Virus record (IMG/VR): IMGVR_UViG_3300040816_000786
Location: 1 to 49,801 of that record
Strand: one strand, 5' to 3'
DNA length: 49,801 nucleotides
Source of the DNA: a virus
In this document: one piece after another, positions 8,339-25,581 of the stretch
How positions within the stretch are numbered: the stretch's first letter is position 1
Layout: the number at the start of each line of letters is the position of its first letter
Notes under the pieces: generated by a model
The model's database searches: none
What the model was told of the DNA's origin: nothing
The model's input: only the letters and a program-made list of their open reading frames with translations
Program-made: the position numbers and the translations under genes

Positions 8339-8352
8339 TTAAGTAATCACCT

Positions 8353-8388
8353 AAGAGGGCTCAAATAGTTGGGCCCTCTTATTTTTAT
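8353..8388 (+). terminator. intrinsic terminator after gp32
   Basis: AAGAGGGC (8353-8360) pairs with GCCCTCTT (8373-8380), followed by ATTTTTATT. It ends the gp33-gp59-gp32 transcript 15 bases after the gp32 stop. Confidence 0.88.
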
Positions 8389-8399
8389 TGGAGAAAAAC

Positions 8400-8681
8400 A
8401 TGTCAACAGTATCAGAAGATATTTTAGATTTTGATTTTGGATTTACTGCAGTAGATGCTGATGAGCTTGAGGTTGTACGAACTGCAACTGAAAAATCAGA
8501 GGAACTATCTGCTCAGGTAGAATCCACAAGCGCAAAAGCAGAACTTGTTTATAATGCAATTATTCCACTTCTTAATAATCTAAAGGCAAATCCTGAAAAG
8601 GATTATATTTACTGGCCTAATCGCCACGAAAAGATTGATGCTTTTGCCGACAAGCTTTATGAAATTATGAATGGGAGTTAA
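8400..8681 (+). CDS. conserved-type small acidic protein between gp32 and UvsX (93 aa)
   Basis: An unrecognised 93-residue acidic protein. The N-terminal third is Asp/Phe-rich, the middle is a likely coiled coil (ATEKSEELSAQVESTSAKAE), and the end contains YIYWPNRHEKIDAFADKL. A TTG at 8388 overlaps the TTGGAG ribosome site, so the ATG at 8400 is chosen. The gene is 2 bases from uvsX, suggesting a role in replication or recombination, without direct evidence. Confidence 0.75.
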   Translation: MSTVSEDILDFDFGFTAVDADELEVVRTATEKSEELSAQVESTSAKAELVYNAIIPLLNNLKANPEKDYIYWPNRHEKIDAFADKLYEIMNGS

Positions 8682-8683
8682 CT

Positions 8684-9745: not shown

Positions 9746-9750
9746 ACCTG

Positions 9751-9779
9751 TTGACTTTTCCTATAATTAATGATATTAT
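9751..9779 (+). promoter_or_regulatory. promoter between uvsX and gp41
   Basis: TTGACT 9751-9756, 17-bp spacer, TATTAT 9774-9779, followed by AGGTACTATAA. A terminator-like hairpin lies only 20 bases downstream of the -10. Confidence 0.6.
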
Positions 9780-9798
9780 AGGTACTATAAAACAAACC

Positions 9799-9830
9799 GG
9801 TGGTGGCTTTTGTCACCACCTATCTTTTTA
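9799..9830 (+). terminator. terminator or attenuator hairpin before gp41
   Basis: GGTGGTG (9799-9805) pairs with CACCACC (9814-9820), followed by TATCTTTTTA. It may end the uvsX transcript, but it also falls inside the leader of RNA started at the promoter at 9751. Confidence 0.7.
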
Positions 9831-9845
9831 TAATATAGGGACAAC

Positions 9846-11493: not shown

Positions 11494-12936
11494 ATGCCTC
11501 GTAATTTTAGAAACTATTTAAATGAAGCTTCTATATTAAAACCTGATTATGTAGAAGGGCATAAATTTGCCTGGAACGGTAAAGGTGTAAAGGAATTTGA
11601 AACCGCCGGTTATAAGCGCAATAATATATTTACTGTAGTTACTGGTTCAGAAGGTGCTGTACTCATTGGAAGCCAAGATGCTGAGAATGAAAAATACCTA
11701 CAAGGACCTGACGGAAAGGTATGGCACTTTAAAGGTGGTCTAAGTTTTAAGGCATCTTCTTTTACCCATGTTAAGGAATCTGGTGGGACACCCAGTGGCG
11801 CCGAATGGGAAAACCTTATTGTATTTGCCTATAATAATCTTAAAGGTACTGCTACAGATGAGGAAACAAAGGAAGTTGCTCTCAAATATTGGGAGCGTTA
11901 TGGTAATATTTCGGATGAAATTGCTAAAAACTTTGATACCAATCTTAAGGCAAAGCAGTTAGTACAAACAGGGCGTGGTTTGGGTAATGTCAAACTTGGA
12001 AAGTTTTGGAAAGCAGCTGGTGCGACAAACAAGACACCAAAAACTGATATCGCATCATCTAATTTTGTGGAAAAGATTTCACTTAAAAAAGGTGGTGGAT
12101 CTCAGCTCATTTCAGCAGAGAAAAAAGAAGCACTTGCAATCGTCAATGCTGCCCTATACGAAATGGGTGGTAACGCACCATTTGCCAAAAAGTTAACTAA
12201 GGCTATTGAAGATAAAATGACCAGACTTGTTACAACTGAGGCGGTCACAACCCTACAGAAACGCTCAATGATGGGTGATAAGGACGCTGGTGTGATTGAT
12301 TATCAGAAAAAGGATAATGATCATAAGGAATTGTCTGCAATGCTCAAGGAGGCCATTAGAGGGGCATCCGAAAGCAATAACTTATTCGCTCGACATATTG
12401 TACTAGAGGCAGCCACTGGTAATAATAAATTTGGTGGTGCCAATTCAAAGGCAGCCGCAAATGTTTTAGGAAAATTTGATATTAGAACATTTGAGGTGGT
12501 TGTACAACCCATTTCATCTATTGATGATCCTATTATTATAGAGTATGCACAAAAGGTACGGCCATATGTTGCATTTAAAAAAGGTTCAGCGGGTTCTGCT
12601 GCTTATTCGGCAATGCGGATGGGTTTATCCGAAGGCTATACATTCCAAAAACTAGTCACCGAAGAACTTTCAAACATTCAAGGTTTCTATCTTACAGAGG
12701 ATATTCTAAACGAAGGTCCTATGGGTATGCTTAGACGTGCTGGCACATTTGCCAAACGTGCAGGTGCCGCAGCTAAAAAAGCATTGGATGCAGCAGTTAA
12801 AAAGATCATTTTAAAATTAAAAAAGGTATTTGCAGCCATTGCCAAAAAAGGTAAAAACATGATGGCAGCCCTTATGAAGTTCTTAGGGGTTGAGGTAAGT
12901 ACTGCATCAGGAATTCCAGCAGAGGTAGGTCTATAA
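11494..12936 (+). CDS. putative internal head protein with nuclease-like core (480 aa)
   Basis: The N-terminus FRNYLNE (residues 5-11) followed by A12 matches the capsid-targeting pattern of T4 internal proteins, with a [LI]-x-E prohead-protease site after E11. The core has E104/E106, KTDI (D185) and KISLKKGGGSQL (about 194-205), an arrangement reminiscent of PD-(D/E)XK nucleases, with Ser in place of the usual acidic residue before K198; this is a pattern match only. Residues 415-465 are Ala/Lys-rich amphipathic helices with few acidic residues, suited to DNA binding or membrane contact. The gene begins a late operon with the ligase-like gene. Alternative reading: an ordinary structural protein. 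Confidence 0.6.
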   Translation: MPRNFRNYLNEASILKPDYVEGHKFAWNGKGVKEFETAGYKRNNIFTVVTGSEGAVLIGSQDAENEKYLQGPDGKVWHFKGGLSFKASSFTHVKESGGTPSGAEWENLIVFAYNNLKGTATDEETKEVALKYWERYGNISDEIAKNFDTNLKAKQLVQTGRGLGNVKLGKFWKAAGATNKTPKTDIASSNFVEKISLKKGGGSQLISAEKKEALAIVNAALYEMGGNAPFAKKLTKAIEDKMTRLVTTEAVTTLQKRSMMGDKDAGVIDYQKKDNDHKELSAMLKEAIRGASESNNLFARHIVLEAATGNNKFGGANSKAAANVLGKFDIRTFEVVVQPISSIDDPIIIEYAQKVRPYVAFKKGSAGSAAYSAMRMGLSEGYTFQKLVTEELSNIQGFYLTEDILNEGPMGMLRRAGTFAKRAGAAAKKALDAAVKKIILKLKKVFAAIAKKGKNMMAALMKFLGVEVSTASGIPAEVGL

Positions 12937-14189
12937 TGAAAAGATTTAAAAACTATATTGCAGAGGAGGTCCTTACAGAGGATAAGAATTTGCATATGAC
13001 GCACCTTGAGGATGCGGTCCTTGATGGGGGTGTGGTTGGTACTCGGAATGTTATTAACTATCTTCGTGCATTGAGAGACATGTTAGGTGGCAACACCAAG
13101 GCACCAGTAAATGTCTCTGTAAAATGGGATGGGGCACCGGCAATTTTTGCTGGGAAAGATCCATCCGATGGCAAATTCTTTATTGCCAAAAAAGGTGTTT
13201 TTAATAAGAATCCCAAAATATATAAAACAGAAGCTGAAATTGACAATGATATATCAGGTGACCTTGCGTCAAAGTTTAAGGTTGCTTTAAAAGAGTTTAG
13301 TAAGCTCGGCATTGAAGGAGTGGTACAGGGTGATTTCCTATATACGAATGATGATTTACAAACGACGGCTATTGATGGAGAATCGTATATTACTTTCCAT
13401 CCTAATACGATTGTTTACGCGGTACCAACAAAAAGCAAACTTGCAAAAACAATTTCAGGATCCTCGATCGGCGTGGTCTTCCATACAACATACCGAGGAG
13501 ATTCATTTGAAACAATGTCAGCAAGTTTTGGAAAGGAGATTGTACCTTCTCTCAAAAAAGTCAAATCGGTCTGGGCGGTAGATGCAGTATTTGAAGATAA
13601 GTCGGGCAATGCCACATTTACAGCTGCAGAGACAAAAGCATTAAATTCTATTCTAACCAAGGTAGGCACACTGTTCAGAACAATTAAAAAGGAAACCCTA
13701 AACGGTCTTTCAAAGGCAAATAATGAGGAACTTAATACACGCGTAAATGTATATGTAAATCAAAAGGTCCGAGCTGGAGAACGTATTGGAAACCCTAAAC
13801 AGTTTGTGGCTGGTCTCACAAAATACATCAATGACTATTACGGCAAAGAGGCAGATAAAAAGAAAACCCAGCGCGGTAAAGACACACAGACCGCAAAGCG
13901 TGACTCGGCTCTAGCCTATTTTGCAAACAATAATAAAAAAGAAATAGAACGCTTATTTGAAATGTATAACCTATTAGTTGATGCTAAACTTATGGTTATT
14001 TCAAAATTAAACCATGTCGATGGTCTACAAACATTTCTTAAAACCAATAAAGGTTTTGAGGTTACTGGACAGGAAGGCTTTGTCGCCATTGATCATATGG
14101 GTAAAAATTCACTTAAACTTGTAGATAGACTACAATTTAGTAAGGCGAACTTTAGTACAGAATATATTAAAGGCTGGGAGAAAAAGTAA
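12936..14189 (+). CDS. putative internal head protein with DNA/RNA ligase-like nucleotidyltransferase core (417 aa)
   Basis: FKNYIAE at residues 4-10 is a capsid-targeting-like start with an I-A-E cleavage site. The core shows SVKWDG (61-66), like the K-x-D-G motif I whose Lys63 would carry AMP. Next come EGVVQGDFLY (127-136), then EGFV (380-383) and LKLV (393-396), which resemble motifs III, IV and V of ATP-dependent ligases and capping enzymes. The order is right but the long gap before motif IV is unusual, so activity is uncertain. If packaged and injected, it could repair incoming DNA or modify host RNA. The ATG overlaps the stop of the gene before it. Confidence 0.6.
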   Translation: MKRFKNYIAEEVLTEDKNLHMTHLEDAVLDGGVVGTRNVINYLRALRDMLGGNTKAPVNVSVKWDGAPAIFAGKDPSDGKFFIAKKGVFNKNPKIYKTEAEIDNDISGDLASKFKVALKEFSKLGIEGVVQGDFLYTNDDLQTTAIDGESYITFHPNTIVYAVPTKSKLAKTISGSSIGVVFHTTYRGDSFETMSASFGKEIVPSLKKVKSVWAVDAVFEDKSGNATFTAAETKALNSILTKVGTLFRTIKKETLNGLSKANNEELNTRVNVYVNQKVRAGERIGNPKQFVAGLTKYINDYYGKEADKKKTQRGKDTQTAKRDSALAYFANNNKKEIERLFEMYNLLVDAKLMVISKLNHVDGLQTFLKTNKGFEVTGQEGFVAIDHMGKNSLKLVDRLQFSKANFSTEYIKGWEKK

Positions 14190-14419
14190 TGGCTTGGGTA
14201 GCAGTACCAGGATCTAATGGAATTTGGGAATATGATAATGCGGCCAGCACAGCTGATGCTGATACATATGATGATGCAAATGGTACTGTTACTGGAGGAA
14301 TTAGATCATTTACACCTCCGGGCGGTTCTGCTCAATTCACCTATATCAAGACAAGAAAAGTAGGTGAGACAATCGTTCGCGGAGAACTCAATAAAAACTA
14401 TTATGACGGCAAAATTTAA
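14189..14419 (+). CDS. small probable virion protein (76 aa)
   Basis: A 76-residue Gly/Thr/Asp-rich protein beginning MAWVAVPGSNGIWEYD. Composition and position directly before a large structural gene suggest a virion component. It starts at the stop of the ligase-like gene. No family recognised. Confidence 0.6.
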   Translation: MAWVAVPGSNGIWEYDNAASTADADTYDDANGTVTGGIRSFTPPGGSAQFTYIKTRKVGETIVRGELNKNYYDGKI

Positions 14420-14435
14420 GAGATAGGTAAGAGCA

Positions 14436-15743
14436 ATGGCACAATTTAACAAAGATACAGGTGAATTTCTCAATAATAATAAAACACTATATGAAGTTGT
14501 TATGGTTGCTGGCCAAGCCGGGCCCTCAACATATGTTAATACAGGCAATCTAAACACATCTTCTGATTCTTTTGGCAGAATGAGAGTCTCAGAACCACTT
14601 ACTTTGTTTGATAGTAGTCATAGATACGCCGACAATGGACTTTTTTCAGAGAGCATAACAGGAACGGCATCATCAACATTTAACGGTGATGCAGGACTTA
14701 TTGACTTAGATGTTGGTTCAAGTTCCGGTGATGAAATTCTCAGAGAAACCAATAAGACATTTGCATATCAGCCCGGCAAAAGTCTATTGATTCTTTCAAG
14801 TTTTATGCTTGCTGCAGCAAAAACTAATCTAAGACAGCGAGTTGGTTATTTTGGTTCTGAAAATGGTATCTTCTTAGAACAAGACGACAGTAATATATTA
14901 GTGGTATTGCGAAGTAAAGTAACTGGTAGTGTAGTTGACACAAAAATTGCAAAGGCAAACTGGAACGTTGACTCGTTAGATGGTACAGGCCCAAGTGGAG
15001 TGACTTTAGATTTGACTAAGGTTCAACTTATGTGGTTGGACGTTGAGTGGCTTGGTGTTGGTAGTGTGCGTTTTGGTTTTGTGGTCAATGGACAGTTTAT
15101 TCCATGTCATGTATTCCATCATGCAAATTTAATTGATTCCACATACATGACAACTGCATCTCTACCATTAAGACAAGAACTTACAAATACTGGTGCAACT
15201 TCTGGTGCAAGTCAGGCAAAACAAATTTGTAGCACTGTTATTAGTGAAGGTGGATATGAACTAAGAGGTAGACAACACGCCATTGGAACTCCAATTACCA
15301 GTGCATATCAATTGGCCGATGCCGGAACATATTATCCTGTAGTTTCAATTAGACTGAAATCTGCAAGACAAGATGCAATTGTTATTTTGACTGCATTGTC
15401 TCTATTGGGGGTTGGTAATGGTGTAAACTTCTCATGGAAAATTGTTGCAGGCGGAACAGTGACAACAGCTTCTTGGACAAGTGCTGGTTCCGATTCTTCA
15501 GTCGAATACACCTTATCTGGAACTGCGCATGATGGCGGTGGTAGAGTTCTTGCACAGGGGTATTTGAATTCCTCTAATCAAGGTTCGCCCACAATGGATA
15601 TTCTAAAAGAGGCACTATTCAAGTTTCAGTTAGAGAGAAATTCATTTGCTGATGTTATGGAACCACTCTCGTTTTTGGTTGCTCCGGCAACTGATGATGA
15701 AGATATTTTTGCCTCGCTGGATTGGGAAGAGGTTACACGATAA
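14436..15743 (+). CDS. virion structural protein, possibly fibre or receptor-binding (435 aa)
   Basis: The segment DSFGRMRVSEPLTLFDS (about residues 44-60) is a recurring motif in structural proteins of many tailed phages, usually in tail-fibre or head-decoration-like proteins. The rest is beta-rich with many Gly, Ser and Thr and few Cys, with no signal or membrane segment. A virion surface protein is the best guess; the exact part cannot be assigned. It precedes the glycan-modification island, so it could be a target of glycosylation or sulfation (speculative). Confidence 0.65.
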   Translation: MAQFNKDTGEFLNNNKTLYEVVMVAGQAGPSTYVNTGNLNTSSDSFGRMRVSEPLTLFDSSHRYADNGLFSESITGTASSTFNGDAGLIDLDVGSSSGDEILRETNKTFAYQPGKSLLILSSFMLAAAKTNLRQRVGYFGSENGIFLEQDDSNILVVLRSKVTGSVVDTKIAKANWNVDSLDGTGPSGVTLDLTKVQLMWLDVEWLGVGSVRFGFVVNGQFIPCHVFHHANLIDSTYMTTASLPLRQELTNTGATSGASQAKQICSTVISEGGYELRGRQHAIGTPITSAYQLADAGTYYPVVSIRLKSARQDAIVILTALSLLGVGNGVNFSWKIVAGGTVTTASWTSAGSDSSVEYTLSGTAHDGGGRVLAQGYLNSSNQGSPTMDILKEALFKFQLERNSFADVMEPLSFLVAPATDDEDIFASLDWEEVTR

Positions 15744-15761
15744 TTTATTATAGGTTATATT

Positions 15762-16475
15762 ATGAAAAATTTAATTTATCAGTATTACAGTAGTCCAGAT
15801 AAAGATCGAGTGAAAAAAGATAGGCCCGGTGTATATATAAATGCCGGTAATTATCACGAGTACTCTAAACAATCCATATCAGCATATGCCAAAAAGCATG
15901 GTGTTTTATATAAATTTATGGACCACAAATTACCTGACGACATCCCTTTATTCTATGGTATTTTTCTACCATTTCTAGAGGGCTGGTGTTGGGATTATGA
16001 TAATATTTGTTTTATTGATAGTGATATTATGGCTACCGTAAATAGTGGAAATGTATTCGACTATGCTGGCAAACAAGGTCTTACATTACATAAAATGGAT
16101 GCTTCAAAACATCGATTTGATTCCAAGCGAGCATTTAAATTCTTTAATGAAATTAACGGCTTCTTTAATAGTGGTGTAGTGATCTTTCCAAGATCCGAAT
16201 ATGAAAATTTCATACATTTTGCATCCACATTAAAACAAAGAGACTTAAACAGAACCTCTGTCGAGAATAGTCTTGGCGGTTTTGATCAAGGTTTATTAAA
16301 TACCTGGATAGCAAATCATAAACGCTATAACGAATTGCCAAAGCAATATAATTATCATATGGGTAGATATCAAAAGCCCGAAAGATGGTACGATGGCGTG
16401 AGCCTAATACACTACCATCGAGAGGACAAAGCATTAATGGAACCAGAGTTTCAGGATGAGAGAATACTTAAATGA
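15762..16475 (+). CDS. glycosyltransferase, GT8-like GT-A fold (237 aa)
   Basis: FIDSDIMA supplies the DxD metal and nucleotide-sugar motif. FNSGVVIF, GGFDQGLLN and LIHYHRE follow in the order seen in GT8-like enzymes (DxD, NxG, FDQ, HxxG-type). It should transfer a sugar from a UDP-sugar to a glycan or protein. It is the first gene of a tightly packed seven-gene + strand run of transferases with ATGA overlaps. No signal or membrane segment, so cytoplasmic. Confidence 0.7.
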   Translation: MKNLIYQYYSSPDKDRVKKDRPGVYINAGNYHEYSKQSISAYAKKHGVLYKFMDHKLPDDIPLFYGIFLPFLEGWCWDYDNICFIDSDIMATVNSGNVFDYAGKQGLTLHKMDASKHRFDSKRAFKFFNEINGFFNSGVVIFPRSEYENFIHFASTLKQRDLNRTSVENSLGGFDQGLLNTWIANHKRYNELPKQYNYHMGRYQKPERWYDGVSLIHYHREDKALMEPEFQDERILK

Positions 16476-17053
16476 TGGGTGATTTAAAATTTACAACTTG
16501 TGGGGATTTTATGCAAGAGCAAGATACTTATATTGACCAGTATAAAGAATTTTACAATAACGGCGGTTACGAAAATAATGATCCCGTGATGAGAGCAAAA
16601 GATGACATTAAAAAGATGCTAAAAAAGTTCGACTGTAAATCATTATTAGATTATGGATGTGGACATGGACTACAATATTCTCAGCACAAATTAGATCAGT
16701 ATTGGGATATTAAAAAACTTACGAAATATGATCCAGGTGTACAAGAATTTGAAATAAAGCCTACTGGGACATTTGATGCAGTCATTAATACTGATGTTTT
16801 AGAGCATATTCCTGAGGATTATGTATATGATGTGATTGCAGACATTTTTAGTTATGCTGGTAAGTTTGTATACTTTAGTATTGCCACAGATCTGGCAAAG
16901 GCAGTATTACCGAACGGGGAAAACGCTCATTGCACATTAAAACCACATTCTGAATGGGTTACCATTATTGATGAAATGCGTGGGGATATTCCTACATTGG
17001 TAAAATGTACTGGCCGTAATCGCTCAAAGATAGGGAGCACGTTACTGGAATGA
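16472..17053 (+). CDS. SAM-dependent methyltransferase (193 aa)
   Basis: LLDYGCGHG (about residues 59-67) is motif I of class I methyltransferases, and FDAVINTDVLEHIPEDYV carries the post-motif D and the DVLEHI block typical of the Methyltransf_11/23 families. It overlaps the gene before (ATGATG around a TGA) and the one after. Within the glycan island it probably methylates a sugar or lipid-linked intermediate. Confidence 0.75.
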   Translation: MMGDLKFTTCGDFMQEQDTYIDQYKEFYNNGGYENNDPVMRAKDDIKKMLKKFDCKSLLDYGCGHGLQYSQHKLDQYWDIKKLTKYDPGVQEFEIKPTGTFDAVINTDVLEHIPEDYVYDVIADIFSYAGKFVYFSIATDLAKAVLPNGENAHCTLKPHSEWVTIIDEMRGDIPTLVKCTGRNRSKIGSTLLE

Positions 17054-17568
17054 TTAGAAAGGTTATACTCATTGGTAATGGTCCGTCAAGTAAATTTTAT
17101 TCACAATTAAATCATTTAGATGGCGGAATGACAGCTGGGTTTAACCTTACTGAACACAATGTAGATATTATTTTTGTAAGCGATAAAAAAGTTATTAATA
17201 AACTTGAAGGCAATCCAAAGGTACATGTATTAAAAAAGCCTTTCATGACAAAAAAAGGTGGGCTTAATCTTGCATGGAATACAGGCCATAATGCATATAA
17301 CTACCTAAGAAAAATGGGTTATACTCATTTTGAAATGTATGGTTTTGATTTGCTCTTTTCAGACAATTGGAGTTCGTCGACAGATCGAGTATTTAATAAG
17401 GATCTGTGGGTTCAACAGGCGATTGAGGTTGACATTAATAACGAATGGATTCAATACTGGAATGAGATAATTGACACACCTACAATCATTCATGCTCCTG
17501 TCGGGGCAAAACTTTATGTAAACTCTAAACATGCACAAATAGAACACCATGAAAACTTTAATTATTAG
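17050..17568 (+). CDS. putative DUF115/sialyltransferase-like glycosyltransferase (172 aa)
   Basis: The N-terminus RKVILIGNGPSSKFY carries the GNGPS loop shared by GT42 sialyltransferases and DUF115/MptE-like proteins. FNLTEHNVDIIFVSD resembles their second nucleotide-binding strand, and FEMYGFDLLFSD a later core strand. The likely role is transfer of a charged or acidic sugar, but the donor cannot be told. It overlaps the next gene by 20 bases. Confidence 0.5.
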   Translation: MIRKVILIGNGPSSKFYSQLNHLDGGMTAGFNLTEHNVDIIFVSDKKVINKLEGNPKVHVLKKPFMTKKGGLNLAWNTGHNAYNYLRKMGYTHFEMYGFDLLFSDNWSSSTDRVFNKDLWVQQAIEVDINNEWIQYWNEIIDTPTIIHAPVGAKLYVNSKHAQIEHHENFNY

Positions 17569-18097
17569 TATGCCTAAATCAGGCACATATCTATGTAGTA
17601 ATTTACTTTTAGAGTTTGGAATCAGACAAACCTTACTACATTTAAACACAGGTACCTACCAGCAATATACATCTGATATAAACGATACCAGAAAAAATCC
17701 CCAAAAATACACACACCAGTTGAACTTTGAAAAGTCAATAGAGTTATTTGGTGATAATGAGTTTGCGGTCACCCACGTACCATATAATAAGAAAAGAGCT
17801 CAATTGCTGAAGAACACAAAGAAAATACTTTTGGTGAGAGACGAAAAGGAAATTGTAGAATCATATCAAAGATGGAATGAAAAAACTGATAGACCTATGC
17901 CAGCGTTAAATTTAGGTGATATAAAGAGATGGGAGCAAGAAACTAATATTTTTAAGCTTTCATTTAATGATATGATAAATAAAAATGTAGAACAGATTGA
18001 TAGGTTACAGAACTATCTTTTTAATAGTATAAAGTTTGATAGTCTGATGTGTATTAAGAATGCAATTGAATTGCCATCAATGACAAAAATGAGGTAA
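17549..18097 (+). CDS. sulfotransferase family protein (182 aa)
   Basis: SMPKSGTY (residues 7-14) is the 5'-phosphosulfate loop that binds PAPS, with the catalytic Lys. KILLVRDEKEIVESYQRW matches the 3'-phosphate binding strand and helix (RxxxxxxxSxY). It is shorter than typical enzymes (about 250-300) and may be a minimal version. It would move sulfate from PAPS to a sugar hydroxyl. First of three adjacent sulfotransferase-like genes. Confidence 0.7.
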   Translation: MKTLIISMPKSGTYLCSNLLLEFGIRQTLLHLNTGTYQQYTSDINDTRKNPQKYTHQLNFEKSIELFGDNEFAVTHVPYNKKRAQLLKNTKKILLVRDEKEIVESYQRWNEKTDRPMPALNLGDIKRWEQETNIFKLSFNDMINKNVEQIDRLQNYLFNSIKFDSLMCIKNAIELPSMTKMR

Positions 18098-18101
18098 TAT
18101 T

Positions 18102-18773
18102 ATGGTAATATGTGATAAACATAATTTTATATTTCTGAGAATTCCGAAGAATGCAAGCTCTAGTCTTGCAGATTTTTTCGTGAGAAACTTTTGTGATCAG
18201 AATGATATATGGACAGAGGTAAACGATTGTGGTATTAGAGACAATAATGTAAACCCAGAGTTGATTAGAAAATATAGACATCAGTACAGGTTTATCCACC
18301 TAATGCTTCAGGAACTAGTGGATAATAATGTCGTGACCCCGACTACGTTGGCTGATAAGGAAATCATAAGTGTACTTAGAAACCCACATAGGCGCCAATT
18401 ATCACTTTATTTCTTTTTAAAGCGAGGACAAAGAAAATCGCCTGAGGAATTTAGACATATTTTTAGAGATGGTTATCATGAAACGGATACTTCAAATAGG
18501 ATTCTCCAAACAGATTATCCTAAATTAAAAGGTGTTGACAAAGGGACATGGTGGATATATAATAGACTTAATGAACACTTGCAAGAGTTTTGCTCCTCCA
18601 AGGGCATGACAGGAAAGTTAGAATTAAAACAATATAAAAACGGATATACACCGAAACAACAAGAAATCTTTGAACAGTATTATGACCAAAAAACACTTGA
18701 TGCTGTTAAAAAATATTATGAAAAGGATTTTGACAAACTTATGGAATTAGGAACGGGATTGGAACTAGCATGA
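18102..18773 (+). CDS. sulfotransferase, family 2-like (223 aa)
   Basis: FLRIPKNASSSLADFF (residues 11-26) is the PAPS loop in the IPKNASSS form of carbohydrate sulfotransferase family 2. ISVLRNPHRRQLSLYFF is the 3'-phosphate motif (RNPxxRxxS). Length is close to normal for phage and bacterial forms. The next gene overlaps by ATGA. Together with its neighbours it suggests sulfated glycan synthesis during infection. Confidence 0.75.
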   Translation: MVICDKHNFIFLRIPKNASSSLADFFVRNFCDQNDIWTEVNDCGIRDNNVNPELIRKYRHQYRFIHLMLQELVDNNVVTPTTLADKEIISVLRNPHRRQLSLYFFLKRGQRKSPEEFRHIFRDGYHETDTSNRILQTDYPKLKGVDKGTWWIYNRLNEHLQEFCSSKGMTGKLELKQYKNGYTPKQQEIFEQYYDQKTLDAVKKYYEKDFDKLMELGTGLELA

Positions 18774-19450
18774 ACGAAATACAAAAAGCTTATATTTTAA
18801 GAATTGACACCGATCTATCACGAGAGTATGCTCAAATTACCGCTGATTCTTGTGATACAATAGGACTACCTTACGAATATCACGAGGGCTTCTATAACAT
18901 GGATCCAAATGACGCCTGGAATACCATAGGCTTGAGTAGACATATCAAGCGTAATAACTGGGTTCCAGCTGCACAACTTTGTACGGCTGGTCATGCAGCT
19001 ATTTGGAAAAAGATTGCAGACAATAATGAAACTGCAATTATTCTTGAGCATGATGCTGTAATGCTACACGATCCTCGGAATGTTAAAATTGGTGATAATA
19101 GAATTGTATGTCTAGGATACAAGTTAAAGGATCCAACTAGATATGACCATGAAGCCGCAGGTGGTCCTAGAGGACTTAGACAAATATCTGGCCACGAAGG
19201 TGCTCATGCTTATGCCATCTCGGCGGCTACCGCTAGGTCGATGCTCAAGGAAATTGAGGAAAATGGTGTAAGGTCAGCGGTTGACAATCTATACTTTCTC
19301 ATCCAACGTGCAAATTATACAAAGATTCCTTTGGCTATTATGGACCCAACAGCTGCAATTGGTTGGCTGCGAGACTCTACAATTTGGGAGGAACCAGCAG
19401 AAAATAATTATGCCTTTGTAGCATCATTTGAAAGAAATCTGGTAAATTAA
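18770..19450 (+). CDS. glycosyltransferase family 25-like (LPS type, 226 aa)
   Basis: The block AAQLCTAGHAAIWKKI, then ETAIILEHDAVML with the ExD motif, is the signature of GT25 LPS-biosynthesis galactosyltransferases. GHEGAHAYAISAATARSML also fits this family. It would add a hexose to lipopolysaccharide or a related glycan. It lies between two sulfotransferase genes, consistent with building and then sulfating one glycan. Confidence 0.75.
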   Translation: MNEIQKAYILRIDTDLSREYAQITADSCDTIGLPYEYHEGFYNMDPNDAWNTIGLSRHIKRNNWVPAAQLCTAGHAAIWKKIADNNETAIILEHDAVMLHDPRNVKIGDNRIVCLGYKLKDPTRYDHEAAGGPRGLRQISGHEGAHAYAISAATARSMLKEIEENGVRSAVDNLYFLIQRANYTKIPLAIMDPTAAIGWLRDSTIWEEPAENNYAFVASFERNLVN

Positions 19451-19453
19451 ACC

Positions 19454-20113
19454 ATGTCGTTTCTGTTAAAGAATGATGTTATATCATTACACGTACCAAA
19501 GACGGGTGGTAAGGCATTTGAGCAGTGGATTACATATGGTGCCAGGGTGGTTAAGGAACGAATTGTCAATCAACATTATTCATATTCTGAACTAATAAAT
19601 GTTCACCCTGAGTATACTGATAACGACTATATTATGATTATCAGAAATCCATATGCAAGAATTGTAAGTTGGTACCACCACAGTAGAGATGTGTATACAT
19701 ATAGTATTAATAGACCAGCACAAAAGGACAAGAACCATCCACCAGAATCACCTAGGTTTAGCCCATCATTTGAAGATTGGGTACGAAAGGAGGACCTAAG
19801 AGATTTTCCAGCATTTACAAAAAACAGAACGGCTGGATCTTTTGGAACAATGAAATCATATTTACACCCATCTGGTAGGATGCCAACATATCTATTACAC
19901 CAGGAAACATTAGCAGATGATCTAAAACCATTGAGAGAACTATGGGAAACAGACGCACCATTAACAACTGAAAATAAATCGTCTGTTTCCTTTTCAGGTA
20001 ATAATAATTGGAAAAATGAGTTTAAATCGGATTATACAAAGGACTTTATATACGAATACTTCAAGGAAGACTTTGAAACCTTTGGATATGATAGAAAGTT
20101 CCCCACCGATTAA
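19454..20113 (+). CDS. sulfotransferase family protein (219 aa)
   Basis: ISLHVPKTGGKAFEQW (residues 10-25) is the PAPS-binding loop in the VPKTGG form. IMIIRNPYARIVSWYHH is the 3'-phosphate motif (RNPxxRxxSxY). The C-terminal part has NYTKDF-like YTKDFIYEYFKEDFETFGY, the helix with Y-x-x-D-F found at the end of many sulfotransferases. Last gene of the island; followed by a TATAAATA late box that restarts transcription. Confidence 0.78.
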   Translation: MSFLLKNDVISLHVPKTGGKAFEQWITYGARVVKERIVNQHYSYSELINVHPEYTDNDYIMIIRNPYARIVSWYHHSRDVYTYSINRPAQKDKNHPPESPRFSPSFEDWVRKEDLRDFPAFTKNRTAGSFGTMKSYLHPSGRMPTYLLHQETLADDLKPLRELWETDAPLTTENKSSVSFSGNNNWKNEFKSDYTKDFIYEYFKEDFETFGYDRKFPTD

Positions 20114-20119
20114 GTAAGT

Positions 20120-20127
20120 TATAAATA
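20120..20127 (+). promoter_or_regulatory. T4-type late promoter box
   Basis: Exact TATAAATA 35 bases before the ATG of the 769-residue head-associated protein, directly after the glycan island. Confidence 0.6.
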
Positions 20128-20161
20128 TATCTATAAAGTAGCATAGGAATCGAGACATATA

Positions 20162-22471
20162 ATGGCCGATAAAAAGAAGAAAAAGCCCCCAGTCAAAAAC
20201 TTTAAAGAATTTGACCCGGCCCAATTCATTGAAACTGAACCAAAATTAACAGAAGCCGTTAAAAAAGACACGGTCGTTATTAGTTTCGGCAGAATGAATC
20301 CTATTACAGTAGGACATGAAAAGCTTGTTGGTAAGGTTTTAAATGTTGCTCAAAGCCAAAAGGCGGATCCTGCTATTTTTCTTTCTCACACAACTGATCC
20401 TAAAAAGAACCCTTTAACATATGAGGAAAAACTATTTTTTGCTCAAAAGGCCTTTGGCAAAGTAATTAAGAAATCACCTGCAAGGACAATTATTGAGGTG
20501 GCAAAACAACTACAGAATATGTATAAGAATATGACTGTGGTAGTTGGTTCTGACAGAGTAAAGGAATTTGAAACCTTATTAAATAAATACAATGGAAAAG
20601 ATTATAAATTTAATACTATTAATGTAGTTTCAGCTGGTGAAAGAGACCCAGACTCGGAAGGTGTTTCCGGCATGAGTGCATCCAAGATGAGATCGGCTGC
20701 TGCCGATGATGACTTTAAAAGTTTTAAACAAGGTCTTCCTAAAAAATTACAATCAACCGCAAAAAAGATTTTTGATACAACGAGGCAAGGTATGGCATTA
20801 GATGAAGAAACTTTAGAAGAAGCAGTTCTATCGAGAGCCGCACGACGGAAAAGAGCTCGACTCCTTAGAAGATATAAAGGTAAAATTGCTCTTGCACGCA
20901 AAAAGGCAATGCGTAGACGTGCCACATTAGACACTCTAAAGAAAAGAGCTCGGAAAACTGCACGTACTATGATCAAGGATAAATTGGCAAAGTCCAAAAG
21001 ATTTGCTGATCTTGATCCTACTGCAAAAATTGCTATTGAAAAGAGACTTGAGAAAATGCCATCGGCGCGTCTTGAAAGATTGGCTCGACGGATTCTCCCT
21101 TCAATTAAACGTAAGGAAACGGACCGTATGCAACAAAGAAAAAAGAATGAGTCCTTAAATATTGATGAACAATTTGAAATGTTTATGGAAGAAAGAACAC
21201 CGTCAGGTCGTTTTGGAAAGAATACCCATGATATCAAGGTAAAGGTACCAGGTAGAATTAATAAAGCTATTAAAAAGGGAAGCCCGGTTTGGGACCAACG
21301 TGAGAACAAACCTCACCAGGAAACCAAGAAACACCTTTCCGATATAATGAAAAAGCATGGTGTAAAACCATCTAAGGCAAAACATTATCATAATGACATG
21401 ACAGGTCATTATATGATGGCACATCCAAGTAATGATCCAGCAAAAGTTCATGCCGCGGCAACTGAATTTGAAAAAACAGTAGGTAAGGCGGTTCGTACAG
21501 AAGCCAAAGATGGTGATGGTGTCAATATCGTAAGGGACCGTGAATTTAAGGGTAAACCTATGAAGAAAGAGCCTGGTACAATAGGCATTAAATTCTCTGA
21601 TATGAGAAAGTCTAAGTGGGCCAAGGACTCTGATACCAATCCAAAAAGATCCAAAGCTATGGGTGAAGCCACAGATCTTGAGGAAAAGCTAAAAGCCTCC
21701 GATGATATGGGCACTTGGATTAAGGATTTCCAGGATTCTGATGCACCACAGTTTAAAGACAAATCAAAAGAAAAGCGTAGACAAATGGCTATTGCTGCTA
21801 AATTGGATGCCGAGGATGATGTTAAAAAGGAATCGGTTCAAAAGGGAACTCATATTTCAGACGATCCAAAGGCTATGGCTAGAATAGAAAAATTCTTCAA
21901 AGGTTTGAAGCATCAGCCCAAAGGCAAAGATATGAAAGATATGTTCGGGTTCATGATGAAACAAATGGGCTATAACCCTAAAACCGGCCTTAAAGAATAT
22001 AATGAAGATGTAGATCTTGATGAAGCAGCTCATGATCCTAAACATGTAAAAATGGCTATAGGCATTGCATCTGATAAAAGATATAAAGGTGGTGACATGA
22101 CTGGTGCAGTCAAGTCCATCGAAAAGATCAAAAAGGGACTATCTGATCATCCACAAGTTTCTGCTGTACTAAGAAGACAGAACGAAGAAACCAAAACGGA
22201 ATCGTTGGACGAAATGTGGGGAACATATGTTTCAAAACGACCTCACATGCTATTGGATAAGAACAATAAGGTTAAATTTGACAAGCGCTTTAAAATGTTT
22301 AAAAAGCAAAATGAACTTGAAGAAGAATTTACACTTAATGAAGAAATGGATTTGGTAAATGATCTTGAGAATTCAGTAAATGAGTTTGTAGAATCTAATG
22401 AATTCAAGGAAGCAACTGAACCAAAACTTTCGTTTAAGGATATCCAAAAAAGAATGGGAAAGGCAAAGTAA
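20162..22471 (+). CDS. cytidylyltransferase-like, polyprotein-like head protein (769 aa)
   Basis: A lysine-rich start and FKEFDPAQFIE (14-24) with LTE (29-31) resemble a longer targeting peptide with a protease site. Residues 35-210 form a nucleotidyltransferase domain: GRMNPITVGH (43-52, HxGH-type), GSDR (129-132) and SGMSASKMR (169-177, ISSTxxR-type), as in NMN adenylyltransferases and cytidylyltransferases. Residues 222-320 are extremely basic helices. The rest is small Lys-rich modules separated by acidic linkers such as LDEETLEEA, NEDVDLDEAA and ESLDEMW that offer many [LI]-x-E sites. This suggests processing into several internal proteins in the prohead (inference). Substrate unknown. 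Confidence 0.65.
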   Translation: MADKKKKKPPVKNFKEFDPAQFIETEPKLTEAVKKDTVVISFGRMNPITVGHEKLVGKVLNVAQSQKADPAIFLSHTTDPKKNPLTYEEKLFFAQKAFGKVIKKSPARTIIEVAKQLQNMYKNMTVVVGSDRVKEFETLLNKYNGKDYKFNTINVVSAGERDPDSEGVSGMSASKMRSAAADDDFKSFKQGLPKKLQSTAKKIFDTTRQGMALDEETLEEAVLSRAARRKRARLLRRYKGKIALARKKAMRRRATLDTLKKRARKTARTMIKDKLAKSKRFADLDPTAKIAIEKRLEKMPSARLERLARRILPSIKRKETDRMQQRKKNESLNIDEQFEMFMEERTPSGRFGKNTHDIKVKVPGRINKAIKKGSPVWDQRENKPHQETKKHLSDIMKKHGVKPSKAKHYHNDMTGHYMMAHPSNDPAKVHAAATEFEKTVGKAVRTEAKDGDGVNIVRDREFKGKPMKKEPGTIGIKFSDMRKSKWAKDSDTNPKRSKAMGEATDLEEKLKASDDMGTWIKDFQDSDAPQFKDKSKEKRRQMAIAAKLDAEDDVKKESVQKGTHISDDPKAMARIEKFFKGLKHQPKGKDMKDMFGFMMKQMGYNPKTGLKEYNEDVDLDEAAHDPKHVKMAIGIASDKRYKGGDMTGAVKSIEKIKKGLSDHPQVSAVLRRQNEETKTESLDEMWGTYVSKRPHMLLDKNNKVKFDKRFKMFKKQNELEEEFTLNEEMDLVNDLENSVNEFVESNEFKEATEPKLSFKDIQKRMGKAK

Positions 22472-22965
22472 TGAATAGCTTTAAAGATCATCTTGCAGAA
22501 AAGAAAAATGCAGAAGATCCGGATATCGGAGACCGAAAAGGATCACAACCTTCCGAATATCATAAAGGAATTAAGTCTGTTTCCACCAAGGTCGCTCGTG
22601 ATCAACACTTTAAAAAGTATGCCAAAAAAGGTGAAGATGGCGAGGCGGACAGTCAAGCAAATTATAAACCTGCACCAGGTGACGCCACTGCTACAACAAA
22701 ACCTTCAAAGCACACAAAACGCTATAAGGCTATGTTTGGAGAAGATGCAACAGAAGGCTTAAAGAAAAAGGCCGAGAAAAGCGGTATGCCTCTTGGAGTA
22801 CTTAGGCAGGTTTACAACCGTGGTGTTGCTGCATGGAAATCTGGTCATCGCCCTGGCACTACTCCTCAGCAATGGGGCTTTGCAAGAGTTAATAGCTTTG
22901 TGACCAAATCAAAAGGGACTTGGGGCAAGGCAGATAAGGATTTAGCAGCCAAGGTGGGGGGCTAA
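22471..22965 (+). CDS. putative internal head protein with GHRPGT domain (164 aa)
   Basis: FKDHLAE at residues 4-10 is a targeting-like start with an L-A-E cleavage site. The first 85 residues are polar, Lys-rich and low in complexity. The C-terminal 60 form a compact domain with VYNRGVAAWKSGHRPGTTP and WGFARVNSF, a domain I believe recurs in many phage and environmental proteins without known function. The start overlaps the stop of the previous gene. Predicted to be packaged and cleaved, then injected. Confidence 0.6.
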   Translation: MNSFKDHLAEKKNAEDPDIGDRKGSQPSEYHKGIKSVSTKVARDQHFKKYAKKGEDGEADSQANYKPAPGDATATTKPSKHTKRYKAMFGEDATEGLKKKAEKSGMPLGVLRQVYNRGVAAWKSGHRPGTTPQQWGFARVNSFVTKSKGTWGKADKDLAAKVGG

Positions 22966-22967
22966 AA

Positions 22968-23600
22968 ATGCAAAACTTTAAATCGTTTATTTCTGAAGCC
23001 GGTGGTGCTGGTGAGTGGGGAGCAAAGAAACTCACAAAGAAATATAAAAAAGACACCCCAGGCGAATCCTCTGATTTAAATGAAAGCGCATTAAAAGCAC
23101 TTAGGGTTGCGACCAAAGCTCATGCAGGACAAACACGTAAAAGTGGTGGCAAGTATATTGAGCACCCAAAAGAGGTTGCTCGATTTGTAAAGCAATTTAA
23201 AAAGTCAAATAATCTTTCGGCGTTAGTACAGGCAGCCTATCTACACGATACTATTGAAGATACTGATACAACATATGATGATTTGGTTAAACAGTTTGGT
23301 GCTCTTGTAGCTGATATGGTTCAGGAATTAACAACTGATAAAGCTGCCTCTGATGCTATTGGTAAAGGTGAATACATCGCTGGTAAGATGGCTAAAATGT
23401 CAAGTTGGTCATTAGTTATTAAACTTGCGGATAGATTAGCAAATGTACAAGACATTGATACTCGGCCTGCAGATTTCCAAAAGAAATATGCTGCACAGAC
23501 TGCACTTGCCATTAAACGTCTCCGTAGTGATAGGTTCTTGAGCAAAACACATAATAAAATCATCTCGGCAATTGAGAAAAAGATTAAAGAGTATGTTTAA
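22968..23600 (+). CDS. SpoT/MESH1-like (p)ppGpp hydrolase with capsid-targeting-like N-terminus (210 aa)
   Basis: Residues 4-10 (FKSFISE) plus A11 match the targeting pattern with an I-S-E site. From about 40 on the protein is a small alarmone hydrolase: KAHAGQTRKSGGKYIEHP (50-67, with H52 and H66), AAYLHDTIEDT (89-99) holding the full HDxxED motif (93-98), and KLADRLANV (152-160, D155). HDxxED is kept in hydrolase-active Rel/SpoT proteins. There is no synthetase domain. It should remove pyrophosphate from ppGpp in a Mn-dependent way. Packaging in the head would deliver it with the DNA and blunt the stringent response or an alarmone-based defence (inference). Confidence 0.8.
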   Translation: MQNFKSFISEAGGAGEWGAKKLTKKYKKDTPGESSDLNESALKALRVATKAHAGQTRKSGGKYIEHPKEVARFVKQFKKSNNLSALVQAAYLHDTIEDTDTTYDDLVKQFGALVADMVQELTTDKAASDAIGKGEYIAGKMAKMSSWSLVIKLADRLANVQDIDTRPADFQKKYAAQTALAIKRLRSDRFLSKTHNKIISAIEKKIKEYV

Positions 23601-23976
23601 GTTTAAAAAATATGTATCTGAAGGCCTCAAGCTTAAACTCATTAGAGGTAAAGGCGAAGACGTCTTAAAAATAAAAGATAGTAAAGAGAAGTCTTGGGTT
23701 GAAGTGCGTGGAAAACCTAACTTCGAAACTAAGTTTGATCCAAAAGATCCTCTACATAAAGCAATTGCAGCTTTAAGAAAATCTGTTAATGTGTCTGAGC
23801 TTGTGAATGGAGAGCCTGTAGGCATTAATCCAAACCATCCTGACGGTAAAAAAGCTCTGGCAGCAATAAAGAAGTTGATGAATGAAACTAACGGCTTTCA
23901 ACCAGCAATGATGTTACATGAGCCAACCAAAAAGAAAATATTGTCTAAACAAAAAAAGAATAGAGAAGAAAAATGA
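23593..23976 (+). CDS. putative internal head protein (127 aa)
   Basis: FKKYVSE at residues 4-10 and G11 fit the targeting pattern, with V in place of I/L. A TTG 21 bases upstream opens the frame, but ATG 23593 aligns the motif with its paralogues and overlaps the previous stop as is usual here. The body is very basic (pI high) with SWVEVRGKPNFETKFDPKDPL and a Lys-rich tail. No fold recognised; DNA binding is plausible. Confidence 0.55.
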   Translation: MFKFKKYVSEGLKLKLIRGKGEDVLKIKDSKEKSWVEVRGKPNFETKFDPKDPLHKAIAALRKSVNVSELVNGEPVGINPNHPDGKKALAAIKKLMNETNGFQPAMMLHEPTKKKILSKQKKNREEK

Positions 23977-24668
23977 AAAGATTTAAGCATTATATTTCAG
24001 AAGGTAATGCTAAAGGTGGTTACCATTATGAAGATCAGGTTAATAGTAATCTGAAAAAGCATGGAATGCAGAAAAAGGACCAAAAGAGTGCTGGAGCATC
24101 AAAGGATGCACCTGATGGAACAATTCGGTCCAAGGATGGTAAACATCACAATCTTGAAATTAAACAGAATAAAAATGCTATGTATGGACAAATTGGTATG
24201 CACCACGATGGCAAAACATGGAAGGTAAAGGATAAATCCAAAAAGGATTATCCTGAAACTGCAAAACATATTGAAAAACATGTAGTACCTCATATGAATA
24301 AACATATGGGAAAGCCATCCGGTGATTATCACAAGGATAAAGAAGTACACGGTAACCATTATATCCCACATAAGGGCACTCAGCCCATCCGTGATCATTA
24401 TGCAAAAGATAGAAACACACATTATATTCAGATTGGCAAATCCGGTCTCCACCATATGTCAAAGGATCATGGTAAACTTGGTACTCATGAATTAAACGGA
24501 GATACTCGTTTCCGTGTACGTGTTAAATACCATGGAACAAATAAAAAGACCAACAAGGTAAGTTATAGCCATACTGTTACGATGGAATTAAAGAACCATA
24601 AAGCATCACATATAGATCTGGACCATCATTCAGAACATTTAGGTAAAATACACGGCAAACATGAATAG
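23973..24668 (+). CDS. putative packaged PD-(D/E)XK nuclease-like protein (231 aa)
   Basis: FKHYISE (4-10) plus G11 is a targeting-like start. The core shows E20 (GYHYEDQVNSNL), D48 in APDG and E62-x-K64 in LEIKQNKNAMYGQ (61-73). The E...PDG...ExKQ order is that of restriction-endonuclease-like (PD-(D/E)XK) enzymes. The remaining chain is unusually rich in His, Lys and Gly (many HH, KH, HM pairs), which could bind metal or DNA. If packaged, it would reach the host cytoplasm at injection and could cut host DNA or a rival element. The nuclease call rests on motif pattern only. Confidence 0.6.
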   Translation: MKRFKHYISEGNAKGGYHYEDQVNSNLKKHGMQKKDQKSAGASKDAPDGTIRSKDGKHHNLEIKQNKNAMYGQIGMHHDGKTWKVKDKSKKDYPETAKHIEKHVVPHMNKHMGKPSGDYHKDKEVHGNHYIPHKGTQPIRDHYAKDRNTHYIQIGKSGLHHMSKDHGKLGTHELNGDTRFRVRVKYHGTNKKTNKVSYSHTVTMELKNHKASHIDLDHHSEHLGKIHGKHE

Positions 24669-24945
24669 TTTTAAAACATATATTCTTGAAGCAAAGACAC
24701 CCAAATGGAAAAAGGCAGGGCCGGATGGTGAGCAGGAAATTACCTTTCCTACAGGTAGAAGGTTTAAAATAGAAAAACAACTTGATCAAAATGAGCGACA
24801 TCAACGTGGCGAATATAAGGTCATGGAATGGGATTCCAAAACTCGGGATTGGGAATGGCATGAAACATATAGTCCAAAATGGTATGCTAAAGAGAAGGTA
24901 ATGGAACTAGGCAAGTATGACCAAAAGGGAAAAAAGGTAGGATGA
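24661..24945 (+). CDS. putative internal head protein (94 aa)
   Basis: FKTYILE (4-10) plus A11 fits the targeting pattern (I-L-E site). The rest is Lys/Glu/Trp-rich with repeated WDSKTRDWEWHETYSPKW-like aromatic pairs, probably a small beta domain. It overlaps its neighbours on both sides, part of one translationally coupled late operon. Function unknown. Confidence 0.55.
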   Translation: MNSFKTYILEAKTPKWKKAGPDGEQEITFPTGRRFKIEKQLDQNERHQRGEYKVMEWDSKTRDWEWHETYSPKWYAKEKVMELGKYDQKGKKVG

Positions 24946-25316
24946 AAAAGTTTAAACAACATTTACATGAATCTAACTTTGGTCTATATGAAGGAACCAC
25001 AGTACCACTTGATCAGCCGATGATTGAAATTGATGAGGAACAGGAACCAGAACTTAATTCACCAAAACGTGGCGGCAAGAAAAAGTACATTGTATATGTC
25101 CGGGATCCTAATACAAAGAATATAAAAAAGATCCAATTCGGAGACGACACGGGATTGTCTGCAAAGATTAATGACCCAGGTGCTCGGAAGAATTTTGCAG
25201 CCAGACATAATTGTGCTGATAAAACAGATAAAACCAAGGCTGGCTATTGGGCATGTAGATTACCAAAATATGCCAAACAATTAGGTCTTAAAGGCGGAGG
25301 TGATTTCTTTTGGTAG
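24942..25316 (+). CDS. putative internal head protein with Cys-containing DUF5872-like domain (124 aa)
   Basis: FKQHLHE (4-10) plus S11 fits the targeting pattern (L-H-E site). The C-terminal half carries YIVYVRDPNTKNIKKIQFGD and ARHNCADKTDKTKAGYWACR, a domain I recognise from phages and giant viruses (DUF5872-like). The two Cys and nearby His may form a small metal or disulfide site. Function unknown. It sits 6 bases over the next frame and shares the coupled operon. Confidence 0.6.
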   Translation: MKKFKQHLHESNFGLYEGTTVPLDQPMIEIDEEQEPELNSPKRGGKKKYIVYVRDPNTKNIKKIQFGDDTGLSAKINDPGARKNFAARHNCADKTDKTKAGYWACRLPKYAKQLGLKGGGDFFW

Positions 25317-25336
25317 TCCCGTATAACGACACCAAC

Positions 25337-25570
25337 ATGGGGCTCAGAATATTTGACGTACTAGCCGAGAGCTCAGAGTACGTATGGCACCGTGATAAGG
25401 AAAGTAGAGAAATAGAAGTTATTTCTGGTGAGGGTTGGCAGTTTCAAGTTGAGGATTGCTTACCTTGGTTATTAACTAAAGGGATGAAGTTTACAATAGA
25501 GTCAGGTGTTTACCATAGGCTTTTAAAGGGTGTAGATAATCTTGAAATAAGAATAAAAGAAATAACTTAG
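25337..25570 (+). CDS. small cupin-like protein with targeting-like start (77 aa)
   Basis: A TTG at 25310 opens the frame, but ATG 25337 is a better start and places IFDVLAES at residues 4-11, another L-A-E site close to the targeting pattern. The rest looks like a single small cupin barrel: GWQFQVEDCLPWLLTKGMKF and SGVYHRLLKGVDNLEIRI. A single His suggests no catalytic metal site. Possibly a binding or structural module. Confidence 0.5.
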   Translation: MGLRIFDVLAESSEYVWHRDKESREIEVISGEGWQFQVEDCLPWLLTKGMKFTIESGVYHRLLKGVDNLEIRIKEIT

Positions 25571-25573
25571 CAA

Positions 25574-25581
25574 TATAAATA
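25574..25581 (+). promoter_or_regulatory. T4-type late promoter box
   Basis: Exact TATAAATA 40 bases upstream of the 592-residue polyprotein-like gene, in a 50-base gap between genes. Confidence 0.65.

What the first reader, a model, noticed from the sequence alone, without database searches (positions are those of the whole stretch)
11494..25570. Battery of paralogous-start proteins that look like head-packaged, injected effectors
Nine genes (11494, 12936, 22471, 22968, 23593, 23973, 24661, 24942, 25337) start with nearly the same element, F-[KR]-x-[YFH]-[ILV]-x-E followed by A, G, S, E or K, although the rest of the proteins are unrelated. T4 internal proteins IPII and IPIII start with a similar capsid-targeting sequence (YQEFIAEA). 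It is cut by the gp21 prohead protease at [LI]-x-E. The inference is that this phage packs a whole set of enzymes and small proteins in its head and injects them with its DNA. The set appears to include an alarmone hydrolase, a nuclease-like and a ligase-like protein. Such a diverse cargo controlled by one tag would be an exciting system.
Basis: partly seen in the sequence, partly recalled or inferred. Interest (0 to 1): 0.93.

Follow-up and report, generated by a model that had tools for sequence, protein, structure and literature searches.

The report
Address-tagged cargo set for phage heads
A marine T4-like phage puts the same roughly ten-residue address label, matching the one that loads proteins into T4's head, on eight otherwise unrelated proteins including a likely stress-signal (ppGpp) hydrolase, a ligase-like enzyme and a nuclease-like enzyme, so it probably carries them into the host with its DNA; published virion data from related phages support the loading step.

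Summary
They begin M-x-x-F-[KR]-x-[YFH]-[ILV]-x-E; 0.06 such starts are expected by chance, and the bodies are unrelated. The ninth (25337) is a coincidence: its homologues lack the element. The conserved positions (4, 7, 8, 10) are those mapped by mutation in the T4 IPIII capsid-targeting sequence, where 4 and 7 target and 8 and 10 permit gp21 cleavage. The same rule over all T4 ORFs finds IPII, IPIII and gp61.1. In published virion proteomes of three T4-like cyanophages, five of eight rule-positive proteins were detected, including an NMNAT, a SAM lyase and an APH-like kinase (P = 0.009). Homologues of the window's cargo carry the tag across dozens of marine contigs. Cargo domains also sit inside longer proteins behind an [LIVMF]xE site at the same junction. 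A relative has a tagged protein between portal and gp21 protease, with late-promoter-like boxes shared by head and cargo genes. Best reading: CTS-tagged internal proteins, cut by gp21, injected with DNA; predicted activities are alarmone hydrolysis, nucleotidyl transfer and PD-(D/E)XK cleavage. Packaging is supported through relatives; cleavage and injection are inferred. New variant of a known kind.

The parts
11494..12936 (+). Tagged protein of 480 aa, function unknown; tag MPRNFRNYLNE|A at 11494-11526. C-terminal amphipathic cationic helix after a second LxE site (LTEDILNE|GPMGM)
   Evidence: F5, Y8, E11, A12 invariant in 7 homologues; model of low confidence
12936..14189 (+). Tagged DUF6267 protein, covalent-nucleotidyltransferase (ligase-like) fold; tag MKRFKNYIAE|E at 12936-12965
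   Evidence: E10 invariant in 28 of 28; KWDG motif (K63, D65, G66) invariant; best structural matches RNA and DNA ligases, Z up to 6.8
22471..22965 (+). Tagged DUF5824 protein; tag MNSFKDHLAE|K at 22471-22500
   Evidence: same domain inside longer proteins behind an LxE-type site in relatives
22968..23600 (+). Tagged MESH1/SpoT-type HD hydrolase; tag MQNFKSFISE|A at 22968-22997
23076..23084 (+). Second predicted gp21 site LNE|SA (residues 37-39 of the HD protein), directly before the HD domain, conserved across homologues
23593..23976 (+). Tagged small protein of 127 aa; tag MFKFKKYVSE|G at 23593-23622
23973..24668 (+). Tagged PD-(D/E)XK-nuclease-like protein of 231 aa; tag MKRFKHYISE|G at 23973-24002
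   Evidence: E20 and E62-x-K64 conserved in 23 to 24 of 25 family members, several of them tagged
24661..24945 (+). Tagged small basic protein of 94 aa; tag MNSFKTYILE|A at 24661-24690
   Evidence: same domain inside longer proteins in 17 distinct junctions, all with an LxE-type site
24942..25316 (+). Tagged protein of 124 aa (phrog_7595); tag MKKFKQHLHE|S at 24942-24971
20162..22471 (+). NMNAT/cytidyltransferase-type long protein of 769 aa heading the second cargo operon; no canonical tag here (FKEFDPAQFIETEPKLTE|A), tagged in relatives; homologues found in cyanophage virions
25621..27399 (+). Long protein of 592 aa with repeated E[EV]xLDE-type predicted gp21 sites; similar to virion protein SSCSM1_92 and, by shared phrog hits, to the tagged protein next to gp21 in G002
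20121..20127 (+). T4-late-promoter-like ATAAATA, 41 nt before 20162
25575..25581 (+). T4-late-promoter-like ATAAATA, 46 nt before 25621

Best explanation
The eight leaders are capsid-targeting sequences of the T4 internal-protein type. Made late in infection, the tagged proteins bind the prohead core through Phe4 and the aromatic residue 7. The gp21-family protease of this phage then cuts after Glu10 of [ILV]xE, and often again at inner [LIVMF]xE sites, releasing the mature proteins inside the head. They leave with the DNA and act at once in the host. The predicted cargo includes a (p)ppGpp hydrolase, a ligase-like nucleotidyltransferase, a PD-(D/E)XK-type nuclease and several small proteins. 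Shown here: the motif, its specificity, its conservation, its association with virion proteins in relatives, and the enzyme signatures. Inferred: packaging in this phage, cleavage, injection and the function of each cargo.
For: Enrichment: 8 observed against 0.06 expected. T4 control: the rule finds only IPII, IPIII and gp61.1 in 281 ORFs; lambda and pelagiphage HTVC010P give none. Positions 4 and 7 for targeting and 8 and 10 for processing were mapped by mutation in IPIII (PMC9026906); alignment A1, whose members were chosen by the whole protein, shows F/L at 4, F/Y/H at 7, I/L at 8 and E in 28 of 28 at 10, while other positions vary. Virion data: S-CREM2 4 of 4 rule-positive ORFs detected (SAM lyase, APH-like kinase, cytidylyltransferase, gp136), none among 167 undetected ORFs, Fisher 0.003, or 0.0003 without structural genes; S-SCSM1 NMNAT MKSFLQFLKEA annotated as virion protein; over three proteomes 5 of 8, P = 0.009. 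Junction test: [LIVMF]xE at 17 of 17 (24661 domain), 9 of 9 (DUF5824) and 3 of 5 (HD) junctions inside longer proteins, against 0.11 to 0.25 background. Relatives G001, G002 and C48C1 encode gp21; in G002 a tagged 559-aa protein lies between portal and gp21. ATAAATA boxes stand before head genes and cargo operons, 29 observed against 2.2 expected in G002.
Against: No virion proteome of this phage or a close relative. Tagged S-SZBM1_191 and _192 and S-SCSM1_30 were not detected in virions, though they are small and the S-SZBM1 list is short. S-SZBM1_140 is detected but has the Phe one residue early, so it was not counted. Allowing F at position 8 was decided after seeing S-CREM2; without it that phage gives 3 of 3. 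Authors of the S-CREM2 study could not exclude co-purified contaminants. The S-CREM2 tags have D or S at position 5 and do not meet the window's strict [KR] form. The window is a 50-kb fragment without its own gp21 gene. No late box is well placed before 11494.
Confidence: 0.84

Rival explanations
1. The leader is a true head-targeting sequence, but the cargo serves head assembly or DNA condensation inside the capsid and is not an injected set of host-acting effectors.
For: T4 IPIII affects head morphogenesis and IPs associate with gp22 (PMC9026906). Several cargo proteins are small and basic (24661, 22471). The tagged 559-aa G002 protein lies in the head core module.
Against: Enzyme signatures are conserved: HD residues, KWDG in DUF6267, E and ExK in the nuclease family. 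T4 IPs act in the host as anti-restriction proteins (PMC12373910). Such enzymes have no evident use in a capsid.
Confidence: 0.1
2. The shared leader serves something else, such as a docking or degradation signal in the infected cell, and resembles the T4 CTS by convergence.
For: No direct experiment on this phage; the leader is only about ten residues.
Against: Agreement at four experimentally mapped positions with fixed spacing from Met, association with virion proteins in relatives, and matching protease sites inside fused forms.
Confidence: 0.04
3. The likeness is chance or only reflects recent copying of one 5' gene end without function.
For: Identical residues in the eight tags often share a codon (85 of 102 pairs), as expected also in an AT-rich genome.
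Against: 0.06 expected; the leader stays in homologues down to about 50% body identity, with variable residues 2, 3, 5, 6 and 9.
Confidence: 0.02

Closest known systems
T4 internal proteins IPI, IPII, IPIII and their capsid-targeting sequence
   Same: About ten-residue leader, aromatic residues at 4 and 7, aliphatic at 8, Glu at 10, unrelated mature bodies, gp21-family protease in relatives
   Different: Eight tagged genes in one 50-kb stretch, cargo with enzyme domains, inner protease sites and fused multi-domain forms; T4 has three small IPs, now known as inhibitors of GmrSD restriction enzymes
T4 Alt ADP-ribosyltransferase
   Same: An enzyme packed in the head, cut by gp21 and injected
   Different: Its leader (MELITELFDE) is of another type; no relation of sequence
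Virion-associated enzymes of T4-like cyanophages (NMNAT, SAM hydrolase, APH-like kinase in S-CREM2, S-SCSM1, S-CRM01)
   Same: Several carry the same four-position leader; the NMNAT is homologous to 20162
   Different: Reported without a targeting signal, and with contamination left open by the authors; different cargo, and DUF6267 is untagged in S-SZBM1 and S-CRM01
Ejection proteins of giant phages such as SPN3US
   Same: Proteins packed with DNA and cut by a prohead protease
   Different: Propeptides mostly over 100 residues, no such short shared tag

Membership tests
T4-type internal proteins with CTS | Short N-terminal leader with aromatic residues at 4 and 7 | tested here: met
   in 11494 shifted by one residue; His at 7 in 22471 and 24942
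T4-type internal proteins with CTS | gp21-type cleavage site: aliphatic at 8, Glu at 10 | tested here: met
   Sequence only. Actual cleavage not tested
T4-type internal proteins with CTS | Unrelated mature bodies behind a shared leader | tested here: met
T4-type internal proteins with CTS | Phage encodes a gp21-family (Peptidase_S77) protease | tested here: inconclusive
   found in G001, G002 and C48C1, not in the 50-kb window fragment
T4-type internal proteins with CTS | Protein present in the virion | not testable with these tools
   Not for this phage; homologues or like-tagged proteins in virions of S-CREM2, S-SCSM1, S-SZBM1
T4-type internal proteins with CTS | New N-terminus just after Glu10 in the virion, and injection into the host | not testable with these tools
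   Needs N-terminal proteomics and infection experiments
MESH1/SpoT-type HD (p)ppGpp hydrolase (22968) | HD-domain family with the H...HD...ED...D metal and catalytic motifs | tested here: met
   PF13328 over cut-off; YIEHP, LHDTIED, KLADRL aligned with human HDDC3 (3nr1); activity not tested
Covalent nucleotidyltransferase / ligase superfamily (12936) | Motif I KxDG | tested here: met
   K63, D65, G66 invariant in 28 sequences
Covalent nucleotidyltransferase / ligase superfamily (12936) | Ligase fold | tested here: inconclusive
   the 18 best VIA-align rows are RNA or DNA ligases, Z 5.1 to 6.8, under the level that is clear alone; Foldseek E 0.3 or worse for ligases
PD-(D/E)XK nuclease superfamily (23973) | E...D...ExK catalytic pattern | tested here: inconclusive
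   E20, E62 and K64 conserved; the middle Asp not aligned reliably; fold not modelled

The most novel reading that the evidence does not exclude
Marine T4-like phages run a general, exchangeable protein-delivery system: any domain gains entry to the head by a ten-residue tag or by fusion behind a gp21 site in a tagged chain, and domains move between stand-alone and fused forms. Through it they bring enzymes, among them a ppGpp hydrolase, into starved ocean bacteria before any phage gene is read.
Probability: 0.6. Interest if true: 0.9.

Novelty: new variant of a known kind. Interest (0 to 1): 0.8.

Why it matters
Which proteins phages inject, and how virion-associated enzymes of marine phages get into the head, are open questions. 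A simple rule reads the likely cargo from sequence, agrees with published virion lists whose authors could not tell packaging from contamination, and points to first-minute takeover of slow-growing marine bacteria, including removal of the starvation alarmone. It also gives a natural catalogue of tags and cargo for the existing T4 packaging technology.

Tried and rejected
The ninth gene (25337) was dropped: homologues lack the element. The strict window motif finds nothing in S-CREM2 because position 5 is D or S; the four-position rule was used instead. S-SZBM1 taken alone gives no support from the rule (0 of 2; the detected NMNAT has the Phe at 3). A structure model of 11494 was too poor to search (mean pLDDT 49); a weak PADLOC hit to JetC over its helical part was taken as coiled-coil noise. 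PDB sequence search with the DUF6267 profile found no relative. The scan for 23973 in viral contigs found nothing with short patterns, and its family was found among loci already held. Total ATAAATA count in the window is not above chance (21 against 21.7); only its placement before genes is. Codon comparison of tags was not decisive. ACP17, a cultured relative by UvsX, shows no tag in the 50 kb examined. No paper held links a capsid-targeting sequence to cyanophage or Synechococcus phage cargo; only open-licence papers were searched.
Full report
Observation. The window is a 49.8-kb IMG/VR record of a T4-like marine myovirus: its UvsX is 65% identical to that of phage C48C1, filed under Kyanoviridae. 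Eight of its 76 called proteins begin M-x(2-3)-F-[KR]-x-[YFH]-[ILV]-x-E. No internal position matches among 14,607, and shuffled starts reach at most two. By the position-based rule used below, 8 are seen and 0.06 expected. The bodies are unrelated to each other.

Match to the T4 targeting sequence. In T4 IPIII the first ten residues suffice for packaging; changes at residues 4 and 7 affect targeting, and 8 and 10 affect processing by gp21 (PMC9026906). The window leaders place Phe at 4, Tyr/Phe/His at 7, Ile/Leu/Val at 8 and Glu at 10, with 11494 shifted by one. In 28 DUF6267 homologues chosen by the whole protein, position 10 is Glu in all, 4 is F or L where present, 7 is F, Y or H, 8 is I or L, and the positions between vary. 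The rule M-x(2-3)-[FY]-x-x-[FYHW]-[ILVMF]-x-E applied to T4 gives IPII, IPIII and gp61.1 only. Lambda, pelagiphage HTVC010P and 50 kb of Acidovorax phage ACP17 give none.

Virion evidence from relatives. The S-CREM2 study lists 52 virion proteins (PMC10665884). Four S-CREM2 ORFs obey the rule: gp6 SAM hydrolase (Pfam S-AdoMet_lyase), gp14 APH-like kinase, gp136 and gp154 cytidylyltransferase. All four are in the virion list; none of the 167 undetected ORFs obeys it. In S-SCSM1 (PMC9602691) the virion NMNAT starts MKSFLQFLKEA, while the other rule-positive gene was not reported. In S-SZBM1 (PMC9146016) the detected cytidylyltransferase starts MRFRQFIIEA, one residue short of the rule, and two rule-positive small proteins were not detected. 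Over the three lists 5 of 8 rule-positive proteins are detected, P = 0.009. The S-CRM01 virion kinase, cited in PMC10665884, starts MISFDQFLSEK. In S-SZBM1 the DUF6267 gene next to the detected cytidylyltransferase has no tag and was not detected.

Conservation and exchange of cargo. Of 74 HD-domain loci from IMG/VR, most begin with the tag, and nearly all have [LMF]NE[SN]A directly before the HD domain. Among DUF6267 homologues, 66 of 80 starts obey a slightly wider rule (it also allows Leu at position 4 and other offsets), and many of the rest look like start-calling errors. Three cargo domains occur both as tag plus domain and inside longer proteins. At the junction inside the longer proteins an [LIVMF]xE site is present in 17 of 17 cases for the 24661 domain, 9 of 9 for DUF5824 and 3 of 5 for HD, against 0.11 to 0.25 at random places in the same proteins. 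In L037 and L021 a tag is followed by another domain, then LNE|SAL and the HD domain. This is the pattern expected if the prohead protease separates the parts.

Head context. Three longer relatives encode a gp21-family protease. In G002, which shares the cargo order of the window, a 559-aa protein starting MKTFKNLIAEV lies between the portal and gp21 genes, in the place of the T4 core genes 67 and 68; it carries many ELDE-type sites and shares phrog matches with window 25621. ATAAATA, the core of the T4 late promoter, stands 30 to 60 nt before 29 G002 genes (2.2 expected), including gp21, gp22, gp23, the tagged core protein and both cargo operons, and before 9 window genes (0.8 expected), including 20162 and 25621.

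Cargo. 22968 is an HD hydrolase closest to human MESH1 (HDDC3) and RelA/SpoT hydrolase domains, with the metal and catalytic motifs present. 12936 (DUF6267) has an invariant KxDG motif; the best structural matches of its model are RNA and DNA ligases over residues 63-219, Z up to 6.8, and its first 21 residues are of very low confidence in the model. 23973 belongs to a family with conserved Glu and ExK of PD-(D/E)XK type, many members tagged. 20162 is an NMNAT-like long protein without a canonical tag here but tagged in relatives. 11494 is unknown; the others are small.

Judgement. That the leader is a T4-type capsid-targeting sequence is well supported. That the cargo is cut after Glu10 and injected follows from T4 and is not shown here. 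Internal proteins with a shared leader are known, and about ten are reported in T-even phages (PMC12373910). What differs is the number of tagged genes, the enzymatic cargo, the fused forms with inner sites and the link to virion enzymes of marine phages, for which no targeting signal was found in the papers searched. Hence a new variant of a known kind.

Noticed in passing
T4 (L103) 18966-19130, minus strand: T4 gp61.1 (54 aa, MKTFKEFIKEDMVAGDSGG) obeys the rule and may be an undescribed T4 internal protein.
   Followed up: partly
L107 (S-CREM2) 7704-10313, minus strand: Virion protein annotated as Cas9 nuclease has a tag-like LRFASFMAEA at residue 17; no Pfam match supports the Cas9 label.
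   Followed up: partly
window 30438-30608; L020, L055, L056: A small conserved protein carries a tag-like element at its C-terminus (LKFKDYLEG); in three loci this end is fused in frame ahead of the HD domain. Virion protein SSCSM1_93 also ends in FKEFLEYIE.
   Followed up: partly
window 5185-5802 and 39607-40800: Heme oxygenase and an aminolevulinate-synthase-like PLP enzyme in the same phage.
   Followed up: no
window 4279-5064: Secreted porin-like protein with signal peptide, no Pfam match.
   Followed up: no
window 11494-12936, residues 402-463: Conserved amphipathic cationic helix behind a predicted protease site, possibly released as a peptide.
   Followed up: no
window 15762-20113: Block of glycosyltransferase-, methyltransferase- and sulfotransferase-like genes between the two cargo groups.
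   Followed up: no
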